A DNA stretch of 64,000 bases from contig NZ_JBCJKP010000001.1 in the NCBI RefSeq assembly GCF_039503195.1, positions 6,138,001 to 6,202,000 of the forward strand, in the 5' to 3' direction. Origin of the DNA: Streptomyces mirabilis. Its GTDB lineage: Bacteria; Actinomycetota; Actinomycetes; Streptomycetales; Streptomycetaceae. Shown here piece after piece: positions 43,070 through 53,848 of this stretch; position 1 is the stretch's first letter, and the number at the start of each line of letters is the position of its first letter. The notes below the pieces were generated by a model. That model had not been told where the DNA came from and did no database searches. It saw only the letters and a list, made by a program, of their open reading frames with translations. The position numbers and the translations under genes are program-made.

Positions 43070-44185
43070 GTGACTGCAGAAGAGGAGCGCGGGGGCGGAC
43101 GTGGGGCCGGGCGCGGGGACGGGGACGGGGTCGAGAGCGGGGACGGGAACGAGGGCGCCGCGAGACGTGCCGGACGGCGGAGAGGTCTGCTGAAAGCCGC
43201 CGGCATTTCGCTCGCCGGCGTCCTCGTGCTCTCCGTGGCGGGGGCGGGCTGGGTCTACTGGCATCTGAACCAGAACATCAAGAGCGTGGACATCAACAGC
43301 GCGCTGGGCGACGACCGTCCGGCGAAGGCGGTGTCGACGCCGTCGGCGGCCGTGTCCGCCTCGGCCGCGCCGCTGCCGAGCGGCGCCGTGAACATCCTGG
43401 TCCTCGGCTCCGACTCGCGCAGCGGGAAGGCGAACGCCGCGCTCGGGGGCGGTGACAGCTCGGGCGCCCGTTCCGACACGGCGATGGTCGTCCACATCGA
43501 CGAGGGCCGCACCGAGGCGACGGTGGTGAGCATCCCCCGGGACACCCTGGTGACCCGCCCGTCGTGCCCGACCTCGTCCGGCGGGGCGACCTCGGTGGCG
43601 TACAGCGCGATGTTCAACAGCGCGTACTCGGTGGGCGGTCCGGTCTGTGCGGTGAAGACCGTCGAGTCCCTCACCGACGTCCGCATGGACCACTACATCG
43701 AGATCGACTTCTCCGGGTTCGCGAAACTGGTGGACGCGCTCGGCGGCGTCACGGTGACGACGGACCAGAACATCGACGACGACAAGAGCCATCTGCACCT
43801 GAAGGCGGGCACGCACCACCTGGGCGGCACCCAGACCCTGGCGCTGGCCCGCACCCGGCACGGCATAGGTGACGGCAGCGACCTCGGGCGCATAGGCCTC
43901 CAGCAGAAGCTGGTGAAGGCACTCCTGGAACAGATGGCGTCGACGTCCCTGCTGACCGACCCCACCAAGCTCTACAAGGTCGCCGACGCCGTCACCGGCA
44001 GTCTGACGACGGACACCGGGCTCGACTCGCTGGGCGAACTGATGAAGCTCGGCCAGAGTCTGAAGTCCCTCTCCTCCGACAAGGTCAAGACGATCACCAT
44101 GCCGGTGGTGACGGCTCCGTCGAACCCCAACCGGGTGGTGGCCGACGAGCCGGAGGCGAGCGACCTGTGGGCCTCGCTCAAGTGA
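43070..44185 (+). CDS. LytR-CpsA-Psr (LCP) family glycopolymer ligase
   Basis: A 371-residue type II membrane protein with a charged Gly/Glu-rich cytosolic tail of about 40 residues, one helix (about 45-65) and an extracytoplasmic LCP domain (about 105-330). Family motifs are ILVLGSDSRSG, SDTAMVVHID, VSIPRDTLV, HYIEIDFSGFAKLVDALGGV and LARTRHGIGDGSDLGRIGLQQ. LCP enzymes attach teichoic-acid-type or other glycopolymers from a lipid carrier to peptidoglycan. GTG start at 43070. Its 3' end overlaps the interrupted methyltransferase gene on the other strand by eight bases. Confidence 0.93.
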   Translation: MTAEEERGGGRGAGRGDGDGVESGDGNEGAARRAGRRRGLLKAAGISLAGVLVLSVAGAGWVYWHLNQNIKSVDINSALGDDRPAKAVSTPSAAVSASAAPLPSGAVNILVLGSDSRSGKANAALGGGDSSGARSDTAMVVHIDEGRTEATVVSIPRDTLVTRPSCPTSSGGATSVAYSAMFNSAYSVGGPVCAVKTVESLTDVRMDHYIEIDFSGFAKLVDALGGVTVTTDQNIDDDKSHLHLKAGTHHLGGTQTLALARTRHGIGDGSDLGRIGLQQKLVKALLEQMASTSLLTDPTKLYKVADAVTGSLTTDTGLDSLGELMKLGQSLKSLSSDKVKTITMPVVTAPSNPNRVVADEPEASDLWASLK

Positions 44186-44511
44186 CCCGGTCGACCCCGC
44201 CGACCCGGTACGTCAACAGATAACGCCAGTAGAGGAGTTGGCGGACGCGGGAGCCGGGCAGCAGCCGGTCCGCCTCGCTCCGGACGTCCGCCAGCGACAT
44301 CCGCGGCTCGCGCACCGGCGCCCGCGGGGGCACGGCTCCGCCTCCGCGCAGCCGCTCACCCACCGCCACCCCCGCCCGTGCCACGGCATTGGCGGGCACG
44401 GCGGCGAGGTCCCACCAGGTGATCCCCGCGTAGCAGCCCAGCAGCAGCAGCACCCCGCCGGGCGCGAGCGCCTCCCGGAACCTGGTCACCGTGCCGAACG
44501 GCATGTGGTGC
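44178..44511 (-). pseudogene. C-terminal part of a SAM methyltransferase split by a transposon
   Basis: This is the C-terminal 111 codons of a small class I methyltransferase (HHMPFGTVTRFREALAPGG, LLLLGCYAGITWWDLAAVP). The N-terminal part lies 8.5 kb away at 53064-53334. Removing the transposon and one copy of the GGTGC duplication joins the halves in frame as GHYDVITCLASLHHMPFG, a normal methyltransferase sequence. The intact gene would code for about 201 residues, counting one base missing in a C5 run of the other half. Confidence 0.88.
44507..44511. repeat. Target site duplication, left copy (GGTGC)
   Basis: The 5-bp GGTGC directly flanks the left inverted repeat and recurs at 53059-53063, as expected for Tn3-family insertion. 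Confidence 0.85.
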
Positions 44512-44561
44512 CGGCCTTGGGGACTAGCGGAACAGCCAGTAACGCTAAGCACTTGATCTTG
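44512..44561 (+). repeat. Left terminal inverted repeat of the transposon
   Basis: A 50-bp repeat beginning CGGCCTTGGGGACTAGCGGA, matched in inverted orientation at 53009-53058 with one T/C difference at position 14. It is longer than the usual 38-bp Tn3 repeat. Confidence 0.9.
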
Positions 44562-44571
44562 CTACGTTCGC

Positions 44572-44910
44572 CTACAACTCAAACGTCAGCTGCCCGCCGG
44601 TTTCGAGCGCGGTATGCCGGGTCTGGGCCCGGGTACGGGCGTGGTGGTTACGGTCGTAGTGCAGGTGGCAGCCCTGGCATGGCTTTGAGGTTGGCCGGGT
44701 GACAGTTCTCCGGCGTGTGGTCGAGGTGCGCGCTCTCGTCGTCAGGATGACCCGCGAACCGGTGCCGTACACGGGCTGTCCGTGCCGGTTGGGACACCGG
44801 CCGGGGTGACTGCCGCGTCCGCACTCGCCTTCACACTCGCACCGCCAGCCGGCGCGTTCCTTGATGGCGTTGGAGATGTCCGGCCAGTCGGCGGGACAAC
44901 GCTCGCGGTC
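44572..44910 (-). pseudogene. HNH endonuclease-like remnant
   Basis: Translation gives GWRCECEGECGRG near the start, then AHLDHTPENCHPANLKAM in a second frame and CQGCHLHYDRNHHARTRA in the first again. Together these are the Cys/His pattern of a Streptomyces HNH nuclease domain. Two small indels disrupt it, a stop codon (44911-44913) precedes it in frame, and no start is visible. It seems to be a leftover C-terminal fragment beside the left transposon end. Confidence 0.6.
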
Positions 44911-44934
44911 CTAGGGACGGATCGGCACGTGGGG

Positions 44935-45606
44935 TCACCGTTCCGCAGCGTCGAGCTGGTGGGGGACGGCGGAGGCGCGCAGGTCTTGGAGGTCGGGGAT
45001 GTGGTTGTAGAGGGTGCCCGGGGAGATGCCCAGCATTTTGGCGATCGAGGTGATGGAGCGGCCGGGGTCGGGCAGCAGGTCGCGGGCGGCGCGGATGACT
45101 TCCTCGGTAGCGACGGTGGGGCGCCCGCCGACCCGGCCGCGGGCGCGGGCGGCGGCCAGGCCCTCGCGGGTGCCCTGGACGATGAGTTCGCGGATGAACT
45201 CCGCCAGAGCGGCGAAGACGTGGAAGACGAGTCGGCCGCCGGGGGTGGTGGTGTCGAGGTTCTCGTGCAGCGAGGTGAAGCCGATCCCGCGCGTCCGGAG
45301 TTCGGCGACCATGTTGATGAGGTCCTGGAGGCTGCGGCCGTAGCGGTCGAGCGACGGGACGACGAGGGTGTCGCCAGCGTCGAGGAAGGCGTGGCACGCC
45401 TTCAATTCCGGGCGGAGGGCGTTCTTTCCGGACTTCTTGTCCGAGAAGATCTTCCGGCATCCGGCGGTGGTGAGGGCGTCGATCTGCCGGTCGAGCTTCT
45501 GTCCGCCGCTGGACACCCGCGCGTACCCGATCTTGATCTCGGTGCAGACAAGCGGTTCGGCAACGAGGAGTTCGGGGTGGCCGGACGGCTCCGGAGTGTC
45601 ACTCAT
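44935..45606 (-). CDS. tnpR: Serine resolvase (TnpR)
   Basis: A 223-residue serine recombinase of resolvase size. The catalytic Ser lies in GYARVSS (about residues 26-32); IFSDKKSGK, LVVPSLDRYGRS (Arg residues of the active site) and GGRLVFHVFAALAEFIREL complete the catalytic domain. The helix-turn-helix is at the C-terminus (SITSIAKMLGISPGTLYNHI). It resolves the cointegrates made by TnpA. Its N-terminal extension of about 20 residues is slightly longer than usual. The res-like region lies immediately upstream. Confidence 0.93.
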   Translation of the reverse strand: MSDTPEPSGHPELLVAEPLVCTEIKIGYARVSSGGQKLDRQIDALTTAGCRKIFSDKKSGKNALRPELKACHAFLDAGDTLVVPSLDRYGRSLQDLINMVAELRTRGIGFTSLHENLDTTTPGGRLVFHVFAALAEFIRELIVQGTREGLAAARARGRVGGRPTVATEEVIRAARDLLPDPGRSITSIAKMLGISPGTLYNHIPDLQDLRASAVPHQLDAAER

Positions 45607-45615
45607 GACCCCGGA

Positions 45616-45740
45616 TCATGTCAGAAAACGGTGGTCGAGGGTTCTTGAATGACCCAGGTTTTTGAAGGGTTTTTTGAAGGGGCTGCGGGGTGTGCGGACC
45701 CCCGCACGGTGATCTTCAGAAAACGTTCGTTTTTTGAAGG
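45616..45740. promoter_or_regulatory. Putative res site / tnpR control region
   Basis: Repeated motifs fill this AT-richer stretch directly upstream of tnpR: TCAGAAAACG at 45621-45630 and 45716-45725, and TTTTTGAAGG at 45660, 45671 and 45731. At 45715-45740 two of them face each other as an inverted repeat. Serine resolvases bind three such subsites of unequal spacing. The bases up to 45883 hold nothing else that I recognise. Confidence 0.6.
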
Positions 45741-45883
45741 CGAGGCTCGTCGACCCGCATCGTCTTCTTTGTTGGATGGGAGTGTCGCAGTAAGGGCGGT
45801 TGGTGCGATGCCGGGCCCTCATCAGCACCCCGGGCGAGACTCTGACGGCACGGTCGGCGGCAGCCCGGCGGGGACGCAAGGGG

Positions 45884-46366
45884 TCATCCCGGTTTCTGAT
45901 CGATCTCGGCGAGTCGCGCCTCCACCTGGTCTCCCAATTCGATCAGCAGGTCCATCTGCGCAGGGGTCACGTGGTCGATCAGCACATTGCGCACGTCAGC
46001 CAGGTGGAGCGGGGCGGCTGCCTCGACGAGGGTGCGGCCCTGTTCGGTGATGACCACGACGGCCCCTCGCTGGTCGGTCGCGCATCGCTCGCGGCGGATG
46101 AGGTTGCGGTTCTGCATGCGGGTCAGATGCTGCGACAGACGGCTCTTCTCCCATTGCAGCGCATCTCCGAGTGCGAACGACCGCAGGCGTCCCTCGGGCG
46201 CCTCAGACAGGTGCGCCAGCACCTGGTAGTCGGCGGTGGACAGCCCGCTGTGGGTGCGCAGCTGCCGCTCGATGTATTCGGACAGGCCGGCCTGCATCTT
46301 CATGAGGCTGCGCCAAGCCCGCTGTTCACGCTCGTCCAGCCATCGCGGTTCGTCCATGAAGCCCAT
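45884..46366 (-). CDS. MarR-family transcriptional regulator
   Basis: A 160-residue winged-helix protein. The recognition region is about residues 60-85 (LGDALQWEKSRLSQHLTRMQNR), the wing follows (RRERCATDQRGAVVVITEQGR), and helices at both ends should form the dimer. It diverges from the reductase gene, with two palindromic operators between them, so it probably represses itself and the redox genes until a phenolic, quinone or other electrophile binds. No conserved Cys pair of the OhrR type is evident (a single Cys in RRERCATD). Confidence 0.9.
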   Translation of the reverse strand: MGFMDEPRWLDEREQRAWRSLMKMQAGLSEYIERQLRTHSGLSTADYQVLAHLSEAPEGRLRSFALGDALQWEKSRLSQHLTRMQNRNLIRRERCATDQRGAVVVITEQGRTLVEAAAPLHLADVRNVLIDHVTPAQMDLLIELGDQVEARLAEIDQKPG

Positions 46367-46376
46367 CCTACCGCTT

Positions 46377-46429
46377 TGGTTGACATGTTAACCAGTCCGT
46401 CGTACGGTTTGGTTAACACCTCAACCAAA
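46377..46429. promoter_or_regulatory. Two MarR-type operators between divergent genes
   Basis: TGGTTGACATGTTAACCA (46377-46394) is a palindrome with a single mismatched pair. A second 22-bp palindrome at 46408-46429 starts TTTGGTTAACA and ends TCAACCAAA. The shared half-site is TGGTTRA. Centre-to-centre distance is 33 bp, about three helical turns. Confidence 0.7.
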
Positions 46430-46541
46430 TGGACTTGCGGAGGTCGGAGCCGCCTACAGAAACGCGGCGACAACAGGCCGGACGACGAAGCTGCTCTGCC
46501 GCCTCGACAGCCTTCAGCAATTACTGGAACAGGGAGCACTC

Positions 46542-47153
46542 ATGTCTGCAGACACCCGCTACGCCATCGTGGGCACCGGAAACATCGGTTCGGCGCTGGC
46601 GCGCGTCTTCGCCCGGGCCGGAGTCGAGGTCAGCATCGCCAACACCCGCGGACCGGGCTCGATCAGCGAACTCGCCGCCTCCTGGGGTTCCACGGTCCGG
46701 GCCGTGACGCTCACCGAGGCACTGGCGAGCGACGTCATCTTCATGGCCATCCCGTTCGGCGCAGTCGAGACGTTCGGCAACGCCCTGCCCGACTGGAACG
46801 GGAAGATCGTCGTCGACACCACCAACGCGCACTACGCGCCCAACGCGGGCGACGTCCTCAAGGGTCGGCTCTCCTCGCAGTACGCGGCCGAGGTCCTGCC
46901 CGGCGCCCAGATCGTGAAGGGCTTCAACCACCTTCCCGCCCAGACGCTCGCCGCCGAAGTGCCCTCCGGCCAGGGCAAGCGCGTGGTCTTCGTCTCCAGC
47001 GACTCCGGGGAGGCCAGCTCCCAGATCGCCGAGCTCGCCCGCACGCTCGGCCTGTCGCCGGTGGAACTCGGCAGGATCGACGAAGGCGGACGCCTCATCG
47101 AGGTTCCCGGCGCACTGGTGCTCAGGAACTTCACCGAACAGCCCCTCACCTGA
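46542..47153 (+). CDS. NADP/F420-type oxidoreductase (NAD-binding domain protein)
   Basis: A 203-residue protein of the F420-dependent NADP reductase family. The Rossmann motif GTGNIGSALARVFARAG opens the sequence (about residues 10-26), followed by ANTRGPGS (a pattern that suits NADP), MAIPFGAVETF and VKGFNHLPAQ. Members pass hydride between NADP and F420 or a flavin, and many are of unknown substrate. First gene of the MarR-controlled set, with good GGAG-like spacing before ATG 46542. Confidence 0.85.
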   Translation: MSADTRYAIVGTGNIGSALARVFARAGVEVSIANTRGPGSISELAASWGSTVRAVTLTEALASDVIFMAIPFGAVETFGNALPDWNGKIVVDTTNAHYAPNAGDVLKGRLSSQYAAEVLPGAQIVKGFNHLPAQTLAAEVPSGQGKRVVFVSSDSGEASSQIAELARTLGLSPVELGRIDEGGRLIEVPGALVLRNFTEQPLT

Positions 47154-47155
47154 TC

Positions 47156-47188
47156 GGCCGCATTCCGCCTTCCACAGGCGGTGCGGCC
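47156..47188 (+). terminator. Hairpin terminator after the reductase gene
   Basis: GGCCGCATTCCGCCT pairs with AGGCGGTGCGGCC around TCCAC, with a small internal mismatch, two bases after the stop codon. The rest of the gap to 47417 shows no gene; it is GC-rich and self-complementary at first. Confidence 0.6.
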
Positions 47189-47417
47189 GGCGCCGACGAG
47201 CCGTCCCGCCTCAGCGTCTGCCGTCACCGGCCGCACCGCGGCGGCCGGCGCCCGGCCCGCGGCCGGGTTGCCGCGCAGCAGCGCTCTCCATCGATGAGAC
47301 CGCACTACAGCAACGCTCACGCGTGAGCAGCAAAACCCGCCGGCACACCCATCCTCCACGGATGCCGGTCCCTCACAGCTCGGGCGGTCCGAATCACTCT
47401 CCAGAAAGGCATGACCC

Positions 47418-47789
47418 GTGTTTGTCTTCGCCGCCGTACTGAGCGTTCTGCTCGCCGTTGTCGGGCTGGCCGCCGGACTACCGAAAGCCCTGCTCAAGGG
47501 CAGCATTCCAGCCCAGTTGCAGTCTCCCGGAGGCTTCAGCGCCCCGCTGGTCCGGTTCATCGGGCTGGCCGAGCTGGCCGCAGCCGCAGGGCTCATCGCC
47601 GGTCTCTTCTGGCAGCCCATCGGCGTTGCCGCCGCCCTGGGATTCGCAGTCCTGCTCGTCGGAGCCGTCGGCTTCCACGCCAAGTCCGGCGACTACGCCA
47701 ACCCCGAGACCCGCGGCAACGCGATGGCACCCATCATCCTCACCGTCATCGCGATCGCTGCCGCCGCCACGCTCGTCCTCGCCTCCTGA
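47418..47789 (+). CDS. DoxX family membrane protein
   Basis: A 123-residue protein with four hydrophobic helices. GLPKALLKG, FIGLAELAAAAGLIAGLFW and GAVGFHAKSGD match the DoxX family. Family members associate with oxidoreductases in the membrane and are linked to thiol/oxidative-stress resistance; the chemistry is unresolved. GTG start at 47418 after AGAAAGG. It lies between the reductase and the azoreductase, so a common electron or quinone-related role is plausible. Confidence 0.87.
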   Translation: MFVFAAVLSVLLAVVGLAAGLPKALLKGSIPAQLQSPGGFSAPLVRFIGLAELAAAAGLIAGLFWQPIGVAAALGFAVLLVGAVGFHAKSGDYANPETRGNAMAPIILTVIAIAAAATLVLAS

Positions 47790-47924
47790 CCAGCGCCTGA
47801 ATCCGAGGCGCCACAGCTCACCTTCCGCCCGGCAAACCCGGCCGGGTGATCGCGACGCCCTCGCCACGCGGACCGTCACCGATCATCCGCATTCCCGACC
47901 ACTGCTACACCTGAGGAACATCCC

Positions 47925-48578
47925 ATGACCACTCTTCTGCACCTCGATTCCTCGCTGTTTTCCGGCGACGCCTCCTCCTCCCGCGCCGTGACCGCCGCCT
48001 TCCGCCGGACCTGGCAGGAGCACCACCCCGAGGGCACGGTCATCTACCGTGACCTCGCCACGAACCCCGTACCGCACCTCACCGCCGACGCCCACACCGC
48101 CGGCCAGACCGACCCGGCCACGCACACCCCCGCCCAGGCCGCCGCCCTCGCCCACCGGCTGACGCTGATCGACGAGCTGGAGAACGCCGACGCCATACTG
48201 ATCGGCGCTCCGATGTACAACTACTCGATTCCCTCGACCCTCAAGGCGTGGCTCGACAACATCGTCCTCGTCGGCCGCACCGCCGGCGTGGAAAGCTCCA
48301 GGCTCAAGGGCACCCCCGTCACCGTCGTCGCCAGCCGCGGCGGCTCCTACGCCCCGGGCACGCCCCGCGAGGGCTACGAATACGTGCAGAACTACCTCAC
48401 GGCCGTTCTGGCCGACGCGCTCGCCCTGGACGTGAACTTCATCGTCCCGGAACTCACGATGGCCGTACACAACCCGGCGATGTCCCAGCTGATCCCCCTC
48501 TTCGAAGCCTCCCGCCAGCAGGCACTGGACGACGCAGCCTCCACGGCCAAGGCGATAGCCCACCGCATCGCCGCCTAG
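47925..48578 (+). CDS. azoR: FMN-dependent NADH-azoreductase / quinone reductase
   Basis: A 217-residue flavodoxin-like enzyme. LLHLDSSLFSGDASSSR binds the FMN phosphate, APMYNYSIPSTLKAWLDNIV is the family hallmark around residues 94-113, and VVASRGGSYAPGTPREG binds the isoalloxazine ring. AzoR enzymes reduce quinones, azo dyes and nitroaromatics by two-electron transfer and protect against thiol-reactive electrophiles. ATG 47925 follows GAGGAAC. A long hairpin terminator follows. Confidence 0.92.
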   Translation: MTTLLHLDSSLFSGDASSSRAVTAAFRRTWQEHHPEGTVIYRDLATNPVPHLTADAHTAGQTDPATHTPAQAAALAHRLTLIDELENADAILIGAPMYNYSIPSTLKAWLDNIVLVGRTAGVESSRLKGTPVTVVASRGGSYAPGTPREGYEYVQNYLTAVLADALALDVNFIVPELTMAVHNPAMSQLIPLFEASRQQALDDAASTAKAIAHRIAA

Positions 48579-48595
48579 AAACAGCGCCCTCCGGA

Positions 48596-48627
48596 CGGCG
48601 GCCGTGAAGCACGCTTCACGGCCGCCG
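48596..48627 (+). terminator. Long perfect hairpin after azoR
   Basis: Two perfectly complementary 15-nt arms (CGGCGGCCGTGAAGC and its complement) with a 2-nt centre lie 17 bp after the stop of azoR. It also marks where the following oxidoreductase remnant begins. Confidence 0.75.
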
Positions 48628-48646
48628 TGGGCGAACTCCAGCGGGG

Positions 48647-48949
48647 ACAGGCGGCTGGCTGCCCTCGAAGGAATTTCTCGCCCCGGAGGAGCTGGACGAC
48701 GCGAACCGGCGAATCGACGAGGCGGCCGGCGCTGCCGGGCGGGACCCGAGCCGGACCAACCGGGTCTACAACCTGGTCGGTGACCGTTCGACTACGCAGC
48801 GGGTCGACCTGCTGACGAGCTGGTCGGTCGAGCACGGCATGAACGGCTACATCTTCAGCGGCCCGGTCGACGAGTCCGCGCTGCGCCCCATCATCGAGAA
48901 GGTCGCGCCCGCCGTGCGCGAGGCAGTCGCAAAGGAGCATCGACGATGA
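48647..48949 (+). pseudogene. C-terminal remnant of an LLM-class flavin-dependent oxidoreductase
   Basis: About 100 codons encode GGWLPSKEFLAPEELDDANRRI, DEAAGAAGRDPSRTNRVYNLV and a C-terminal IIEKVAPAVREAVA. This is the end of a luciferase-like monooxygenase. The first 200 or so residues are absent, replaced by the azoR terminator, and no start codon or ribosome-binding site is present. Its stop overlaps the hemerythrin start (ATGA), so the original operon was oxidoreductase-hemerythrin and a deletion joined it to azoR. Confidence 0.72.
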
Positions 48950-49464
48950 CACAGCCGCAGGCGGGAACTGTCGCCGGCCGCCAGATGGTGCAGCAGCTGC
49001 TGATGGCGCATGCGCCGCTGCGCAGCGACGTCGCCGCCCTGCGCAAGGGGCTTGAGGTGCTCGATGCGGCGACCACACGCGCAGAGGACATCGAGGAGCT
49101 GCTCGGCGGTCTGACTGTCGCGGACCTCACCTGGCAGCTCAAGGTGGGCTGCCAGCATTTCTGCGCCCACCTGGACGCCCACCACACGATCGAGGACGCT
49201 CGGATGCTGCCGGTCATGCAGCACCGGTTCCCCGAGCTCACCGATCAGATCGGGCGGCTCCGGCGCGAGCATGAGGAGGTCAAACAGATGATCGTGAGCA
49301 TCCGCGCCGACGCGCGGCAGCTGAACCCCAAGGACGAGCGCTCCGTCCACGTGGTGCTGGAACAGATCGTCGCGCTTGCCGACCACCTCCAGGCCCATCT
49401 CGACTTCGAGGAGCGCACCCTCTTCCCGTACTTCCTGCGGATGGACCACGACTGGCACGCCTGA
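48946..49464 (+). CDS. Hemerythrin-like (HHE) domain protein
   Basis: A 172-residue helical protein with the conserved His/Glu iron ligands spread as in hemerythrins: HAPLRSD (about residue 26), HFCAHLDAHHTIED (about 66-79), RREHEEV (about 107) and HLDFEERTLFP (about 149-159). Such domains bind O2, NO or peroxide, or act as iron sensors, in the cytosol. AAGGAG precedes ATG 48946. With azoR, DoxX and the reductase it makes an oxidative or electrophile stress module. Confidence 0.88.
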   Translation: MTQPQAGTVAGRQMVQQLLMAHAPLRSDVAALRKGLEVLDAATTRAEDIEELLGGLTVADLTWQLKVGCQHFCAHLDAHHTIEDARMLPVMQHRFPELTDQIGRLRREHEEVKQMIVSIRADARQLNPKDERSVHVVLEQIVALADHLQAHLDFEERTLFPYFLRMDHDWHA

Positions 49465-49582
49465 GCTGTTCTGGCCGGGAGGGTGAGTTTGGAGCCGCGG
49501 ACGGCCGTGCCGCCGCGCCATGGAGGCTTTGAAGCTGGACGCTGAGCTTGACTCTGACACGAAAATTGAGGCTTCGTGGAGG

Positions 49583-49705
49583 TCAGGTCGCCTCGATGGG
49601 TTCGAAGCGGATGGCCATCGGCGCGTCCCTGCGGTCGGCGGCGAACCGCTCGTTGGCCTCCCGCAGGTGCTCCCTCATCTCGTCGTGCGAGTCCGTCACG
49701 GTCAT
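49583..49705 (-). CDS. Orphan 40-residue frame in the transposon, unknown
   Basis: MTVTDSHDEMREHLREANER opens a 40-codon frame rich in charged residues, predicted helical, ending in a Phe/Pro/Ile/Glu tail. AGAAGGGGG lies 6-8 bases before the ATG. It may be a small protein or a remnant of a longer gene. The rest of the interval between hemerythrin and tnpA shows nothing else. Confidence 0.4.
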   Translation of the reverse strand: MTVTDSHDEMREHLREANERFAADRRDAPMAIRFEPIEAT

Positions 49706-49790
49706 ACCGGCGCCCCCTTCTCACTGCCCCGCCGGTCGGCGGTGGTCTTCTCGAAGTACAACGACCCGCCCCGGACGGCGGATGCGGCGC

Positions 49791-52700
49791 TCACTCCTCC
49801 TGGCCGTCGTCGTCATCGTCGAGGTCGACAGCATCCGGGTCGCGCAGGGGCCGCAGCCCCTTCACCGGCTGGGAGGCGGTGAAGTTGTACCGGCCCAGGA
49901 CGTTCAGATTCTTGTGCTTGAGCGGGGAGAGCCGGGCGACGTCCTCGTCGCGGATCTCGTAGCCCTCCGCGCGGAGCTGGGCGACGGCGGCGTCGATGTA
50001 GCGCGTCGTCCAAAGGACCACGGCGTTCAGCACGAGCCCCAGCGCCCCGAGCTGGTCCTCCATCCCGTCCCGGTACGCCTGGTGGATGGTGCCCTTCTTG
50101 CCGTGGCAGATGTCGCGGGCGAGCTTGTGGCGGGATTCCTGGACGGTGAGCTGTTTGTGCATCTGGCGGCGGTAGGTGTCGTCGACCGGGTCGACGACGG
50201 CGAGCAGGTGCAGGGTTTTGGCGATGCGCCCGTACTCGGCGAACGCCTGCCCCAGCGGGGCGGGATGCCCTTCTCTGCCGAACATCCTCAGCAGGTCGTA
50301 GGCGCGGACCTGGTTGGTGACCAGGGAGCCGGCGACCCGCAGCATGTCCGGCCAGTGCGTGATCACCTTCTTCACGTTCACCTTGTTCCGCGCGATCGCC
50401 TCCAGCGGCCCGTACTCGCCGGCCGTCTCGGCGCCGGGCATCTGGGCCTTCCAGAACCTCTGGTCTTGAAGGTCCTTGAAGCGCGGGGAGAAGCGGTAGC
50501 CGAGCAGCTTGAAGATGCCGAAGACCATGTCGGAGTAGGAGGCGTTGTCGGTGGCGACCATCTCCGGCTTCACTCCGCCGTCCAGGTTCAACAAGGCGTC
50601 CAGGATGAACAGGGAGTCACGCGGGGTGCCGGGCACCACCATCTGTCCGATGCCGATGACCTGGTCGTTGATGGCGTTCAGCCATGTGATGCCGGTCTTC
50701 TTCGCGAAGTACTTGGGTGAGGGGGCGGCGTTGATGGTGCGGACGGGGACGACGAACCGCAGGCCGTCGACGGAGGCCAGCAGCCCCTTTCCCCAGTGCT
50801 CGACGATGGGCACCTGGGCCTGGGCGGCGATCAGGGCCGCGTTCGCCGCGGCGATGGTGTCGGCGCGCAGATAGTACTGGTCGACGTGGACCAGCCGGGA
50901 GCGGGTCAGAGCCTCGTGGTTGGGGTTGATGACCGGGGTCATCCCGATGTTGCACGCCTCGCTCACCAGCAGGGCGACGACCGAGGTGGTCAGGTCCTTC
51001 ATCCGGGTTCTGCCGTCGTCCAGATGCACGAAAGCGTCCAGGAACCCGGTCCATGAGTACACCTCGAACAGCAGGTCCGGCAGGTCGATCTTCGGAAGCA
51101 TCTTCTCGACACGCTCGCGCAGCCACTTCAGCGACTTCGGCTCACCGAGCGCATGGAGCTTCTCCACGTTCAGCTTCGCCCGGCCGTTGGGCTGCACCTC
51201 GATGCTGATCTTCGCGTCGGAGCCCGCCTCCTGAAGGCGCTCGGCCATCTGCTTCCACGTCGCGTCCAGCACGGCGACCAGTTCCCGAAGGTGCTGTTCG
51301 GCGTCCTCGGCCAGGCTCAGGCCGGCCAGGACGTCCTCGCGCACCGCCTCCCACCCTTGCCCTGAAGCAGCCGGGCTCGCGGGTCGGACCAGCGGTGCGA
51401 GGGCGAGGCGAAGATGTCGCGGCGCCTCAGCGCGCCGAACAGCTGCTCCAGCACACACACCACGTACGCATCCCGGTCCACCGCCCCCTGCGGCAGCTCC
51501 GCGTTCGCGTACACGGCCTTGCGCCAGTGCGCCGGCACCAGCTTGTCGTCGACCTCGCGCGGCAGCAGCGGCTTCTCGCCCACCTTCCGCCGGGAGAGAG
51601 CCGGGAGCCGCTGCACCCCAGTGAGGATCCGTCTGCCGGCGGGCGCCGCGTCCAGCGCCTTCGACTCACCCAGCAGCGACAGGAACGGCCTGACGGTGTT
51701 GTAGCGCAGCGCCAGCGCCCCACGCAGCGCGGTCTCCGCCGTGTCGTCGTCCTCCGGCACCAGGCTCACCACCGTGGCCGCCGCGCTGGAGAGCGCGGCC
51801 CGAGGCGCGACCTCCTCCAAGGCCCGCCACAGCCCGGCCACGTCGACATCGCAGCCGCTCCCCTCGATGAGCTCCAGCTCCTCGATGATCACCTTCGAGA
51901 CCCGGGCGGTGATCCGTGCCGCCTTCTCCAACTGCGGCAGCGTGGACAGGCGCTGCTTGTCCGTGGACCGCCTCGCGGAGCTGATCAGCCGGGTGGCCAT
52001 CAGGATCTCGAAAAGGTCCAGCGCGTCGTCGATCGCCTTCGCCTCCAAGTGGCGCATCACCGCGGTGAGCATCGCCGTGCGCTTGGGCTCCGGGGTCCGC
52101 TCCAGCTTCGGCGCCTTGGTGCCCAGCCCGTACCGGGCCAGCGCGGACAGCCGGTTCGGCGGAACCTGCTCCAGCCTGAGACGGCCCAACTGGAAGGCGG
52201 CGATGTCCTCGACCCGCTGCAACGCGGCCTTCATCGCGGTGCCGGTGGTCCGCGTCGGCGGCCGGCGCATCCGCTCCAGCTCCGAATGCCGTTTGCCCTC
52301 CGGCGTCTTCAGCGTGGCAACCAGGTCGCCGGGCAGAGCCGGGTCCGCCCGCCGGGCCGCCCTGGCGACCGTGGCGTGCAGCCGCTTGTCCGCGACGCCG
52401 CGGACCTCGGCGACCTGCCGGGCCAGCACACTCACTCCCGGCAGCAGCACCCGGTTGCGGCGCAGCCAGCCCACCGCGTGATCGAACAAAGCCTTCGGCC
52501 CCTCCGCGTGCGCCGTCCACGCCCGGCCGTGCAGGAAGGCCCTGAACTTCCGGCCCTGGTCGTGGTCCTCATACTGGTGATAGCCGTACGCGTCACGTAT
52601 CTCCCACGCGTGCTCGTACGGCGTCGGCCTGCGCTCGGTATACCGCTTGATCTGGGAGACATCCCCGATCCCCAGCTGCTCGGCCAGATGCTCGACGACC

Positions 52701-52941
52701 GGCCACGGCACCGCGAGGGGGCCTCCAGGAACAGCCCGATGTACCGCACCGTGCACATCTGAAGCGCGAAGCCGAGACGGTTGTGGTCGCCGCGCCGCTT
52801 CGCGATCAGCTTCAGGTCCTCGTCATCAAGGAAGAAGAACCGCTCCAGCTCGGGCTTCGTCGGCTCCTCGGCGAACTTCCCATACGCCTCAGCCTGCTCA
52901 TCAGTCAGAAATTCCACCGGCATGCGGCGGACCGTAGCCAT
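49791..52941 (-). pseudogene. tnpA: Tn3-family transposase (two apparent frameshifts)
   Basis: Joined, the frames give about 1,050 residues, near the usual TnpA size. The N-terminus reads [17 protein letters not shown] (ATG 52923, or 52941). The DDE catalytic residues are in MVATDNASYSDM, THWPDMLRVAGSL and MEDQLGALGLVLNAVVLW. Frame break 1: a G5 run (plus strand 52717-52721) lacks one base, which would restore [17 protein letters not shown]. Break 2: at 51354-51356 one base more would restore LLQGKGWEAVREDV. The catalytic part (49791-51458) is intact. The C-terminus ends in an Asp/Glu-rich tail. Confidence 0.9.
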
Positions 52942-53008
52942 CCCCCACCAGCGATCGGGGACCTTCCGCCGAATCCCCGCACGGCACCGATCACCTGTGC
53001 TAGAAGCC

Positions 53009-53058
53009 CAAGATCAAGTGCTTAGCGTTACTGGCTGTTCCGCTGGTCCCCAAGGCCG
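53009..53058 (-). repeat. Right terminal inverted repeat of the transposon
   Basis: The 50-bp inverse of 44512-44561 with one mismatch; it lies about 70 bp upstream of the tnpA start, the position expected for Tn3-family ends. Confidence 0.9.
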
Positions 53059-53063
53059 GGTGC
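53059..53063. repeat. Target site duplication, right copy (GGTGC)
   Basis: It matches 44507-44511 exactly. Deleting everything from the left repeat through this copy restores the methyltransferase reading frame across the junction. Confidence 0.85.
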
Positions 53064-53334
53064 AGGCTCGCCAGACAGGTGATGACGTCGTAGTGCCCCT
53101 TCGGCAGCGCGGCGGAGGCCACGTCCGTCCGCCGGAACCGGGGGCCACCCCGATCCGCCGCGCCACGGCGATCACCTCGGCCGACGGATCGACGGCGTCG
53201 ACCTCATAACCCCGCGCCGCCATCCGCCGCGCGAAACCCCCGGTGCCACAGCCGACGTCGAGGGCGACACGCCCGTGTTTCGGCAACTTCCGCAGCAGCA
53301 TCCGGTGGTAGTGATCGTTGTGGTCGAAGGGCAT
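53064..53334 (-). pseudogene. N-terminal part of the split SAM methyltransferase
   Basis: It starts MPFDHNDHYHRMLLRKLPK at ATG 53334 and contains the SAM-binding motif ALDVGCGTGGFARRMAARG and VDAVDPSAEVI. The frame then shifts: after RRIGVAP one extra base in a C5 run (plus-strand G5, 53140-53144) would lead to RFRRTDVASAALPKGHYDVI, which continues into the C-terminal half at 44511. It is therefore interrupted by the transposon and, as sequenced, also frameshifted. Confidence 0.85.
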
Positions 53335-53403
53335 ACGAGGACCCTGCCCACACGAACCCCGCGGCAGCGCCCGGCGAGAAAGTTCCAAGATTTTCGGGGA
53401 CGG

Positions 53404-53427
53404 TGTCGAAACGGGCGTCTCCCGTTC
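53404..53427 (+). promoter_or_regulatory. ECF42-like promoter candidate for the DGPF gene
   Basis: TGTCGA (53404-53409) is the -35 type described for ECF42 sigma factors in Streptomyces, and CGTTC follows at 53423-53427. The 13-bp spacing is shorter than ideal, so the -10 assignment is weak. Confidence 0.4.
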
Positions 53428-53491
53428 GACGCACGGGTGAGAGGCAGGGAGAAGCCCCGCCTCCGAGGCACCACGCACACGAGGAGTCACC

Positions 53492-53848
53492 ATGCCGCGT
53501 TACCTGTCGCTGGTCCAGATCGACGAGAGCACCGCGCCCGCCGAAGGCCCGAGCCCGGAGCTGATGCAGCGGATGGGCGAGCTGATCGAGGAGATCACCA
53601 AGGCGGGGGTCATGCTCGACACCGCCGGGCTGACGCCGTCCGCCCAGGGCAAGCGGGTGCACTGGTCGGGCGGGCAGCTGTCCGTCACCGACGGGCCCTT
53701 CACCGAGTCCAAGGAGGTCGTCGGCGGCTACGCGCTCATGCAGTGCAAGGACATGGCCGAGGCCCTGGAGTGGACCAAGCGGTTCCTGAAGGTGCACGAG
53801 GAGCACTGGACGGTGACCTGCGAGGTGCGGGAGATCGCCGAGGGCTAG
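53492..53848 (+). CDS. YCII/DGPF-domain protein
   Basis: A 118-residue protein with a dimeric ferredoxin-like YCII fold. The DGPF signature is present (VTDGPFTESKEVVGGYAL, about residues 67-84). DGPF proteins are encoded beside ECF42 sigma factors and are their main known targets; their biochemical role is unknown. ATG 53492 has GAGGAG upstream. The sigma gene follows 149 bp downstream. Confidence 0.9.
   Translation: MPRYLSLVQIDESTAPAEGPSPELMQRMGELIEEITKAGVMLDTAGLTPSAQGKRVHWSGGQLSVTDGPFTESKEVVGGYALMQCKDMAEALEWTKRFLKVHEEHWTVTCEVREIAEG

What the first reader, a model, noticed from the sequence alone, without database searches (positions are those of the whole stretch)
44512..53058. Tn3-family transposon carrying a MarR-controlled redox/electrophile module in a Streptomyces core region
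The ends (50-bp inverted repeats, one mismatch), the 5-bp GGTGC duplication, tnpR with a res-like region, and tnpA are all visible. Between tnpR and tnpA is a set of cargo genes: MarR with two operators, an NADP/F420-type reductase, DoxX, azoreductase, an LLM-oxidoreductase remnant and hemerythrin. Known Tn3-family cargo is usually drug or metal resistance. A detoxification module for quinones, nitro- or azo-compounds in an actinomycete Tn3 element would be new to me.
Basis: partly seen in the sequence, partly recalled or inferred. Interest (0 to 1): 0.85.

Follow-up and report, generated by a model that had tools for sequence, protein, structure and literature searches.

The report
Jumping gene carrying chemical-detox cassette
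A soil bacterium's chromosome carries a Tn3-type jumping element that has carried a small switchable set of redox-enzyme genes, probably for disarming reactive chemicals, to several unrelated places in Streptomyces genomes; the vehicle is a known kind, the load is new for it as far as searched.

Summary
Window 44512-53058 is a Tn3-family transposon: 50-bp terminal inverted repeats (1 mismatch), GGTGC duplication, serine resolvase with a repeat-rich res-like region, and TnpA (PF01526, E 3.3e-127). It interrupts a methyltransferase gene that runs through the junction in all 6 other Streptomyces loci checked. The same element (98-99% DNA identity, same cargo) sits at two other sites with its own 5-bp duplications (CTTTT in S. 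mirabilis, GGTCA in G376); five further copies are partial or share a site. So this cargo moves. MarR, an Fno-like NAD(P) reductase, DoxX and an azoreductase are readable in 8 of 8 copies, while tnpA is broken or missing in 6 of 8. Two 18-bp palindromes straddle a promoter-like sequence; with up to one mismatch the motif occurs nowhere else in the 11.1-Mb genome, and it is conserved in relatives down to about 70% protein identity. Corrections: tnpA is frameshifted here, F420 binding is unsupported, the hemerythrin gene is dispensable, and the core module also occurs outside recognisable elements. Streptomyces Tn3 elements with non-resistance cargo are known (Tn4556). A MarR-repressed quinone/nitro/azo detoxification cassette is the likeliest function; the inducer is untested.

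The parts
44507..44511 (.). left target-site duplication GGTGC
   Evidence: sequence; repeated at 53059-53063
44512..44561 (+). left terminal inverted repeat (50 bp)
44935..45606 (-). tnpR, serine resolvase, 223 aa
   Evidence: PF00239 E 2.5e-42
45607..45745 (.). res-like region with repeated GTTTTTTGAAGG / TCAGAAAACG motifs
   Evidence: an 86% DNA match to the NBC_00873 element covers tnpR and this region, 44948-45740
45884..46366 (-). marR, 160-aa MarR-family regulator (single Cys, residue 95)
   Evidence: PF12802 E 3e-13; translation; nearest solved chains 3zmd and 3zpl
46377..46394 (.). operator-like palindrome 1, TGGTTGACATGTTAACCA (contains the -35-like TTGACA, 46380-46385)
46403..46408 (+). 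-10-like TACGGT, 17 nt after TTGACA; TA.GGT invariant in the 8 aligned sequences; promoter inferred
   Evidence: the generic sigma-70 scan did not list it
46410..46427 (.). operator-like palindrome 2, TGGTTAACACCTCAACCA
46542..47153 (+). Fno-like NAD(P)-binding reductase, 203 aa
   Evidence: PF03807 E 1.1e-19; nearest 4huj and STEAP domains; below npdG cut-off
47418..47789 (+). DoxX-family membrane protein, 123 aa (GTG start)
   Evidence: PF13564 E 4.4e-16
47925..48578 (+). azoreductase / quinone reductase-like flavodoxin-fold enzyme, 217 aa
   Evidence: PF02525 E 1.4e-33; nearest 7awv, then 9l10 'FMN dependent NADH:quinone oxidoreductase'
48585..48633 (+). strong RNA hairpin, probable end of the azoR transcript (no T run)
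   Evidence: -40.3 kcal/mol, z -6.0
48650..48949 (+). C-terminal remnant of an LLM (luciferase-like) oxidoreductase gene, overlapping the hemerythrin start
   Evidence: 38-49% to the C-end of longer ORFs in 22 other genomes; two of those tested are PF00296
48946..49464 (+). hemerythrin-domain protein, 172 aa
   Evidence: PF01814 E 2e-14; cut or absent in 4 of 8 copies
49791..52941 (-). tnpA, Tn3 transposase, interrupted by two frameshifts in this copy
   Evidence: PF01526 and PF13700; alignment to an open copy
53009..53058 (-). right terminal inverted repeat (50 bp)
53059..53063 (.). right target-site duplication GGTGC
53064..53334 (-). N-terminal part of the interrupted SAM-dependent methyltransferase gene
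   Evidence: PF13649 on 53076-53493; spanning orthologues
44178..44511 (-). C-terminal part of the interrupted methyltransferase gene
   Evidence: spanning orthologues

Best explanation
It is a Tn3-family transposon that has taken a MarR-linked redox operon (Fno-like NAD(P) reductase, DoxX, azoreductase) into the slot between its resolvase and transposase, and has carried it to several places in Streptomyces chromosomes and large plasmids. Shown: ends, duplications, uninterrupted sites in other species, the same cargo at other sites, gene intactness, and conserved paired palindromes. Inferred: MarR binds the two palindromes that straddle the operon promoter and shuts it; a small electrophile (quinone, nitro- or azo-compound) releases it; the azoreductase then does two-electron reduction of the compound with NAD(P)H, while the Fno-like protein and the membrane protein DoxX supply or handle reducing equivalents. 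The hemerythrin gene is a dispensable addition dragged in with the tail of an LLM oxidoreductase gene. In this strain the element is probably no longer self-mobile, because tnpA is frameshifted.
For: Same element at other sites, each with its own 5-bp duplication: window GGTGC, S. mirabilis NBC_01248 plasmid CTTTT, G376 GGTCA. No element at the junction in all 6 spanning loci examined, 70-76% identical. marR, Fno-like, doxX and azoR readable at full length in 8 of 8 copies, hemerythrin in 4 of 8; tnpA is frameshifted in the window and in G376, partly deleted in MBT65, and the element's own tnpA was not found in the G193, G226 and NBC_01462 loci, so 6 of 8; it is open in S. mirabilis, and I did not test S. 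diastatochromogenes. dN/dS is 0.10-0.62 against Actinacidiphila (four genes) and NBC_01549 (three genes; no MarR match there). The operator motif occurs only at these two places in the genome; both palindromes match it perfectly in L114/L115 and have at most one mismatch each in L083, L084, L085, L086 and L117. Solved relatives of the azoreductase are mostly named azoreductases or NADH:quinone oxidoreductases. In B. subtilis and S. aureus, MarR-type repressors control azoreductases, nitroreductases and dioxygenases for quinone detoxification (PMC6798810, passages read).
Against: No substrate or inducer evidence exists. MarR lacks the N-terminal cysteine used by YodB/QsrR (one Cys only, residue 95), so a thiol switch of that type is unlikely. 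The nearest solved MarR chains (3zmd, 3zpl) are, from memory, Streptomyces regulators not known for quinone ligands. The host already has three azoreductase paralogues (69-72% identity). Between the near-identical copies there are too few changes, and several pairs give dN/dS near or above 1. Copy counts are biased: the S. diastatochromogenes and MBT65 copies were found with the Fno-like protein as query, and two of the eight copies probably share one insertion. The generic promoter scan found 0 sites.
Confidence: 0.62

Rival explanations
1. The transposon is real, but the cargo's job is specific metabolism of one natural product or plant/soil aromatic (for example a quinone antibiotic or siderophore-like catechol), with MarR sensing that single ligand; general electrophile defence is a side effect.
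For: A sibling cluster on Streptomyces plasmids (L114/L115) keeps MarR, Fno-like and DoxX but has a gene annotated VOC (Pfam glyoxalase, just below its cut-off) and the N-terminal part of an LLM oxidoreductase where azoR sits here, as expected if the downstream enzymes are swapped to fit substrates.
Against: No biosynthetic or transport gene was recognised in the element; the core set is generic redox.
Confidence: 0.25
2. The cargo is a neutral passenger: genes caught by chance between resolvase and transposase, kept only because the copies are young.
For: Copies are 98-99% identical, so perhaps too young for decay to show, and several close pairs have dN/dS near or above 1; the hemerythrin and LLM pieces look like scrap.
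Against: tnpA is broken or missing in 6 of 8 copies while the four cargo genes are readable in 8 of 8; the operator-like sites are conserved in clusters at about 70% protein identity.
Confidence: 0.2
3. Not a transposon cargo but an ordinary chromosomal cluster flanked by chance by repeats.
For: The core module, or part of it, also occurs without detected ends in L083, L084 and L114 and L085/L086.
Against: Same boundaries at unrelated sites with matched 5-bp duplications, and uninterrupted sites in other species.
Confidence: 0.01

Closest known systems
Tn4556 (Streptomyces Tn3-family transposon, PMC6403206; passages and section 5 read)
   Different: 6625 bp, 38-bp repeats, a resolvase of 324 aa with the PF00589 (phage integrase) motif, and methyltransferase and isoprenyl diphosphate transferase cargo. 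The window element has a PF00239 serine resolvase and a MarR/redox operon. The two TnpA sequences were not compared here.
Streptomyces Tn3 elements with 81-88% identical tnpA DNA (plasmids of NBC_01727, S. anulatus YINM00001, NBC_00046, S. californicus)
   Same: Similar ends (4 to 12 mismatches in 38 bases to the window's left end), 5-bp duplications AGATC, GACAT, TGCAC and AACCC, recombinase - cargo - tnpA order.
   Different: Cargo is TetR + MFS transporter, merB with a heavy-metal regulator, alpha/beta hydrolase, or hypothetical genes; all four have a longer recombinase gene (about 0.9-1.0 kb against 0.67 kb).
Streptomyces sp. NBC_00873 Tn3 element (L011)
   Same: tnpR and adjacent res-like DNA 86% identical, tnpA about 74%.
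   Different: A GNAT acetyltransferase gene as cargo; only one weak end was found (13 of 38 mismatches).
MhqR / YodB / CatR quinone regulons of B. subtilis and S. aureus (PMC6798810, passages read)
   Same: MarR-type repressor with an operator at the promoter, azoreductase-type enzymes; a gene annotated VOC in the sibling cluster L114.
   Different: No transposon mentioned in the passages read; no YodB-type N-terminal cysteine here; Fno-like and DoxX partners are not among the genes named in those passages.

Membership tests
Tn3-family transposon | Tn3-type DDE transposase (TnpA) | tested here: met
   PF01526 full-length, E 3.3e-127; this copy frameshifted, S. mirabilis copy open over 1073 codons
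Tn3-family transposon | long terminal inverted repeats | tested here: met
   50 bp, 1 mismatch; same ends in copies elsewhere
Tn3-family transposon | 5-bp target-site duplication | tested here: met
   GGTGC, CTTTT, GGTCA in three insertions
Tn3-family transposon | site-specific resolvase with adjacent res site | tested here: met
   PF00239 resolvase; repeat-rich region next to it; res activity itself not testable
Tn3-family transposon | replicative transposition through a cointegrate, target immunity | not testable with these tools
   needs experiment
Tn3-family transposon | assignment to a named subgroup or listing in ISfinder/TnCentral | not tested
   those databases are not on hand
Quinone-sensing MarR regulon (MhqR/YodB type) | MarR-family repressor with operator over the promoter of a detoxification operon | tested here: inconclusive
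   MarR domain and conserved, genome-unique palindromes found; binding not shown
Quinone-sensing MarR regulon (MhqR/YodB type) | conserved N-terminal redox cysteine (YodB/CatR/QsrR only) | tested here: not met
   only one Cys, residue 95 (translation); in S. aureus MhqR its cysteine was not required for quinone sensing (PMC6798810)
Quinone-sensing MarR regulon (MhqR/YodB type) | induction by quinones or diamide | not testable with these tools
   needs experiment
NADPH:F420 oxidoreductase (Fno/npdG) | score above the npdG equivalog cut-off | tested here: not met
   36 bits against 149.8

The most novel reading that the evidence does not exclude
Streptomyces have a mobile, inducible electrophile-defence cassette: one MarR-controlled promoter with twin operators, whose downstream enzyme slot (azoreductase here, VOC and LLM enzymes in the sibling plasmid cluster) is swapped as the module moves on Tn3 elements and large plasmids, so that tolerance to natural quinones or nitro-compounds spreads between soil strains much as drug resistance does elsewhere.
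Probability: 0.3. Interest if true: 0.6.

Novelty: new member of a known kind. Interest (0 to 1): 0.42.

Why it matters
It adds a regulated redox operon to the list of loads that Tn3-family elements carry and gives a naturally replicated case (three sites with matched duplications, near-identical copies) in which the cargo seems to outlast the transposase. It also gives an unusually clean regulator test: two operator-like sites, nowhere else in the genome at up to one mismatch, directly next to a repressor gene, so the unknown inducer could be sought with one reporter strain.

Tried and rejected
Rejected: F420-dependent reductase (below cut-off). Hemerythrin as a core member (hairpin in front, cut or absent in 4 of 8 copies; 3 of 295 Streptomyces genomes matched 48629-49470 at E<=1e-15, and all three, G000, G193 and G226, are copies of the element). 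Chromosomal cluster at its home locus (independent insertions). Wide native occurrence of the whole cargo: of 392 Streptomyces genomes, 125 match at E<=1e-100, but only G000, G376, G193 and G226 match beyond the azoreductase gene and its edges. In the genus searches one or two candidate stretches per genome were scored in the rows shown, so weaker clusters can be missed. The generic sigma-70 scan found 0 promoters in 45600-49700, and the terminator scan did not list the azoR hairpin. Rows not used in counts: L087 (53% Fno-like relative in a Propionibacteriaceae MAG) and L088 (partial match in Nonomuraea); in L084 marR and the Fno-like gene are followed by a Mutator-type transposase gene. Paper searches for this cargo in a Tn3 element and for MarR+DoxX+azoreductase+quinone listed nothing that by title or abstract describes it; only open-licence PMC papers were searched. 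Not settled: whether the tnpA frameshifts and an apparent frame loss in the interrupted methyltransferase gene are real or assembly errors.
Full report
OBSERVATION. The ends are as described: a 51-nt, 98% complementary pair at 44511-44561 / 53009-53059; the next-longest inverted pair in the region is 44 nt at 73%. Taking the outermost base pair as part of the duplication gives 50-bp repeats and GGTGC on both sides. The same outer ends (CGGCCTT...AAGGCCG, with one base changed at one end in G376) bound copies at other sites, so the boundary is not a guess.

ELEMENT PROTEINS. Pfam: resolvase PF00239 (E 2.5e-42), Tn3 transposase PF01526 (E 3.3e-127) with DUF4158, MarR_2, F420_oxidored, DoxX_2, Flavodoxin_2, Hemerythrin, all above cut-off. 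TnpA is spread over three frames by two single-base frameshifts relative to the S. mirabilis copy, which is open for 1073 codons; a relative, L012, is open for 1067.

EMPTY SITE. The joined flanks (542 bases) were searched in 392 Streptomyces genomes: 35 had a match at E<=1e-25, own genome included, several of them spanning almost the whole query. Six spanning loci (L098-L103) were aligned and all 6 run through the junction without the element (alignment gaps of 5 to 32 bases in all); for 5 of the 6 the script printed an open methyltransferase reading frame across it. The identity is 70-76%, so these are other species, not the same strain before insertion. An earlier search with the N-terminal flank alone in 61 genomes gave 2 matches, own included.

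OTHER COPIES. (a) S. mirabilis NBC_01248 plasmid NZ_CP108478.1: 98.5% identity, 97% of the element, 8304 bp, duplication CTTTT. S. diastatochromogenes ATCC 12309 shares the right-hand junction, hence probably the same insertion; its sequence ends within tnpR. (c) Partial copies: NBC_01462 plasmid (left part; its tnpR is also interrupted by a stop), G193 (left part without the outer end), G226 (left part, lying next to tnpA-like DNA of another Tn3 element), MBT65 (right end present, tnpA partly deleted, left end not found). In PLSDB 117 records match part of the element and 1 covers 80% or more. Of 392 Streptomyces genomes, 65 have some match at E<=1e-200, mostly to tnpA or tnpR, and only G000, G376, G193 and G226 carry the cargo as a block at E<=1e-100; the other matches of that search are to azoreductase paralogues (one or two candidates scored per genome in the rows shown).

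CARGO INTEGRITY. In the 8 copies compared (window, G376, G193, G226, S. mirabilis, S. diastatochromogenes, NBC_01462, MBT65) marR, the Fno-like gene, doxX and azoR are readable at full length in 8 of 8; the hemerythrin gene is full-length in 4 of 8, altered at its 3' end in 3 and absent in 1, where the copy breaks off before it. tnpA is frameshifted in the window and G376, partly deleted in MBT65 and not found as the element's own gene in the G193, G226 and NBC_01462 loci; it is open in S. mirabilis; I did not test it in S. diastatochromogenes. S. diastatochromogenes and MBT65 were found with the Fno-like protein as query, so that gene's presence there is not independent, and two of the eight probably share one insertion. 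Between near-identical copies changes are few and several pairs give dN/dS near or above 1; against Actinacidiphila (four genes) and NBC_01549 (three genes; no MarR match) the values are 0.10-0.62.

REGULATION. The motif TGGTTNACNNNTNAACCA occurs at two places in the genome with up to one mismatch, both between marR and the Fno-like gene; control 0. Both palindromes match it perfectly in L114 and L115 and have at most one mismatch each in L083, L084, L085, L086 and L117; in the last three the Fno-like protein is about 70% identical. In the NBC_01562 region L116 only weaker matches (2 mismatches) were seen. Palindrome 1 contains TTGACA, and TACGGT follows 17 nt later, just before palindrome 2; TTGAC and TA.GGT are invariant in the 8 aligned sequences, three of them copies of this element. 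That geometry is the usual one for a repressor that blocks polymerase. The scan for generic promoters does not list it.

ANCESTRY OF THE MODULE. On plasmids of NBC_00055 and NBC_01527 a damaged tnpR, the res-like region, marR, the Fno-like gene and doxX align with the window over 2.7 kb at 90%, but azoR is replaced by a gene annotated VOC (Pfam glyoxalase at 18.8 bits, cut-off 20.6) followed by an N-terminal LLM piece. That piece is 36% identical to the N-end of L119, a member of the family whose C-end remains in the window. No element end was detected in L114 within 13 of 38 mismatches. I read this as the tnpR-marR-Fno-doxX block being older than the present element and its downstream enzymes being exchanged; this is inference.

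WHAT IT LIKELY DOES. Solved relatives of the azoreductase are mostly FMN-dependent azoreductases and NADH:quinone oxidoreductases. The Fno-like protein is nearest to 4huj and STEAP NADPH domains; a true F420:NADP oxidoreductase (5n2i) comes after them, and it is below the npdG cut-off. MarR is nearest to 3zmd and 3zpl. PMC6798810 (passages read) describes MarR-type repressors of quinone reductases, nitroreductases and dioxygenases in B. subtilis and S. aureus. I therefore favour an inducible detoxification cassette for quinone-like electrophiles, at about 0.5-0.6 for the function and near certainty for the anatomy.

COMPARISON. Tn4556 shows that Streptomyces Tn3 elements with non-resistance cargo are known. 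Eight related plasmid regions were opened (L011, L012, L091-L096). In four (L091, L093, L094, L096) paired ends with a 5-bp duplication were found, with different cargo; in L012 both ends but no duplication; in L092 and L095 one end; in L011 one weak end. PMC7157771 (passages read) states that Tn3 passengers include virulence and organic catabolite degradation genes besides resistance. So this is a new cargo, as far as these searches reach, in a known kind of vehicle.

Noticed in passing
49791-52941: tnpA carries two single-base frameshifts relative to an open copy; the interrupted methyltransferase gene also seems, by eye, to lose frame near 53140 against orthologues. Real decay or assembly indels not settled.
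   Followed up: partly
L042:3877-5666: G376 copy: an insert with a 390-aa transposase-like ORF sits just inside the right terminal repeat; the junction repeats four bases.
   Followed up: partly
L093:6082-12260: S. anulatus plasmid Tn3 relative carrying a heavy-metal-responsive regulator and organomercurial lyase merB, duplication GACAT.
   Followed up: no
L114:7641-11471: Plasmid cluster with damaged tnpR, marR, Fno-like, doxX, then a gene annotated VOC and an N-terminal LLM piece: a sibling of the window cargo with exchanged enzymes.
   Followed up: partly
L048 (G000:C1:1082000-1094000): Two further tnpR relatives (78-80% protein identity) and a distant tnpA (23%) lie near 1.082-1.090 Mb of the same chromosome.
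   Followed up: no
L044:11886-12211: G226 copy lies directly beside tnpA-like DNA of another Tn3 element, as if inserted into it.
   Followed up: partly
L045, L046, L047: The host genome has three more azoreductase paralogues (69-72% identity), one of them on the 170-kb second contig.
   Followed up: no
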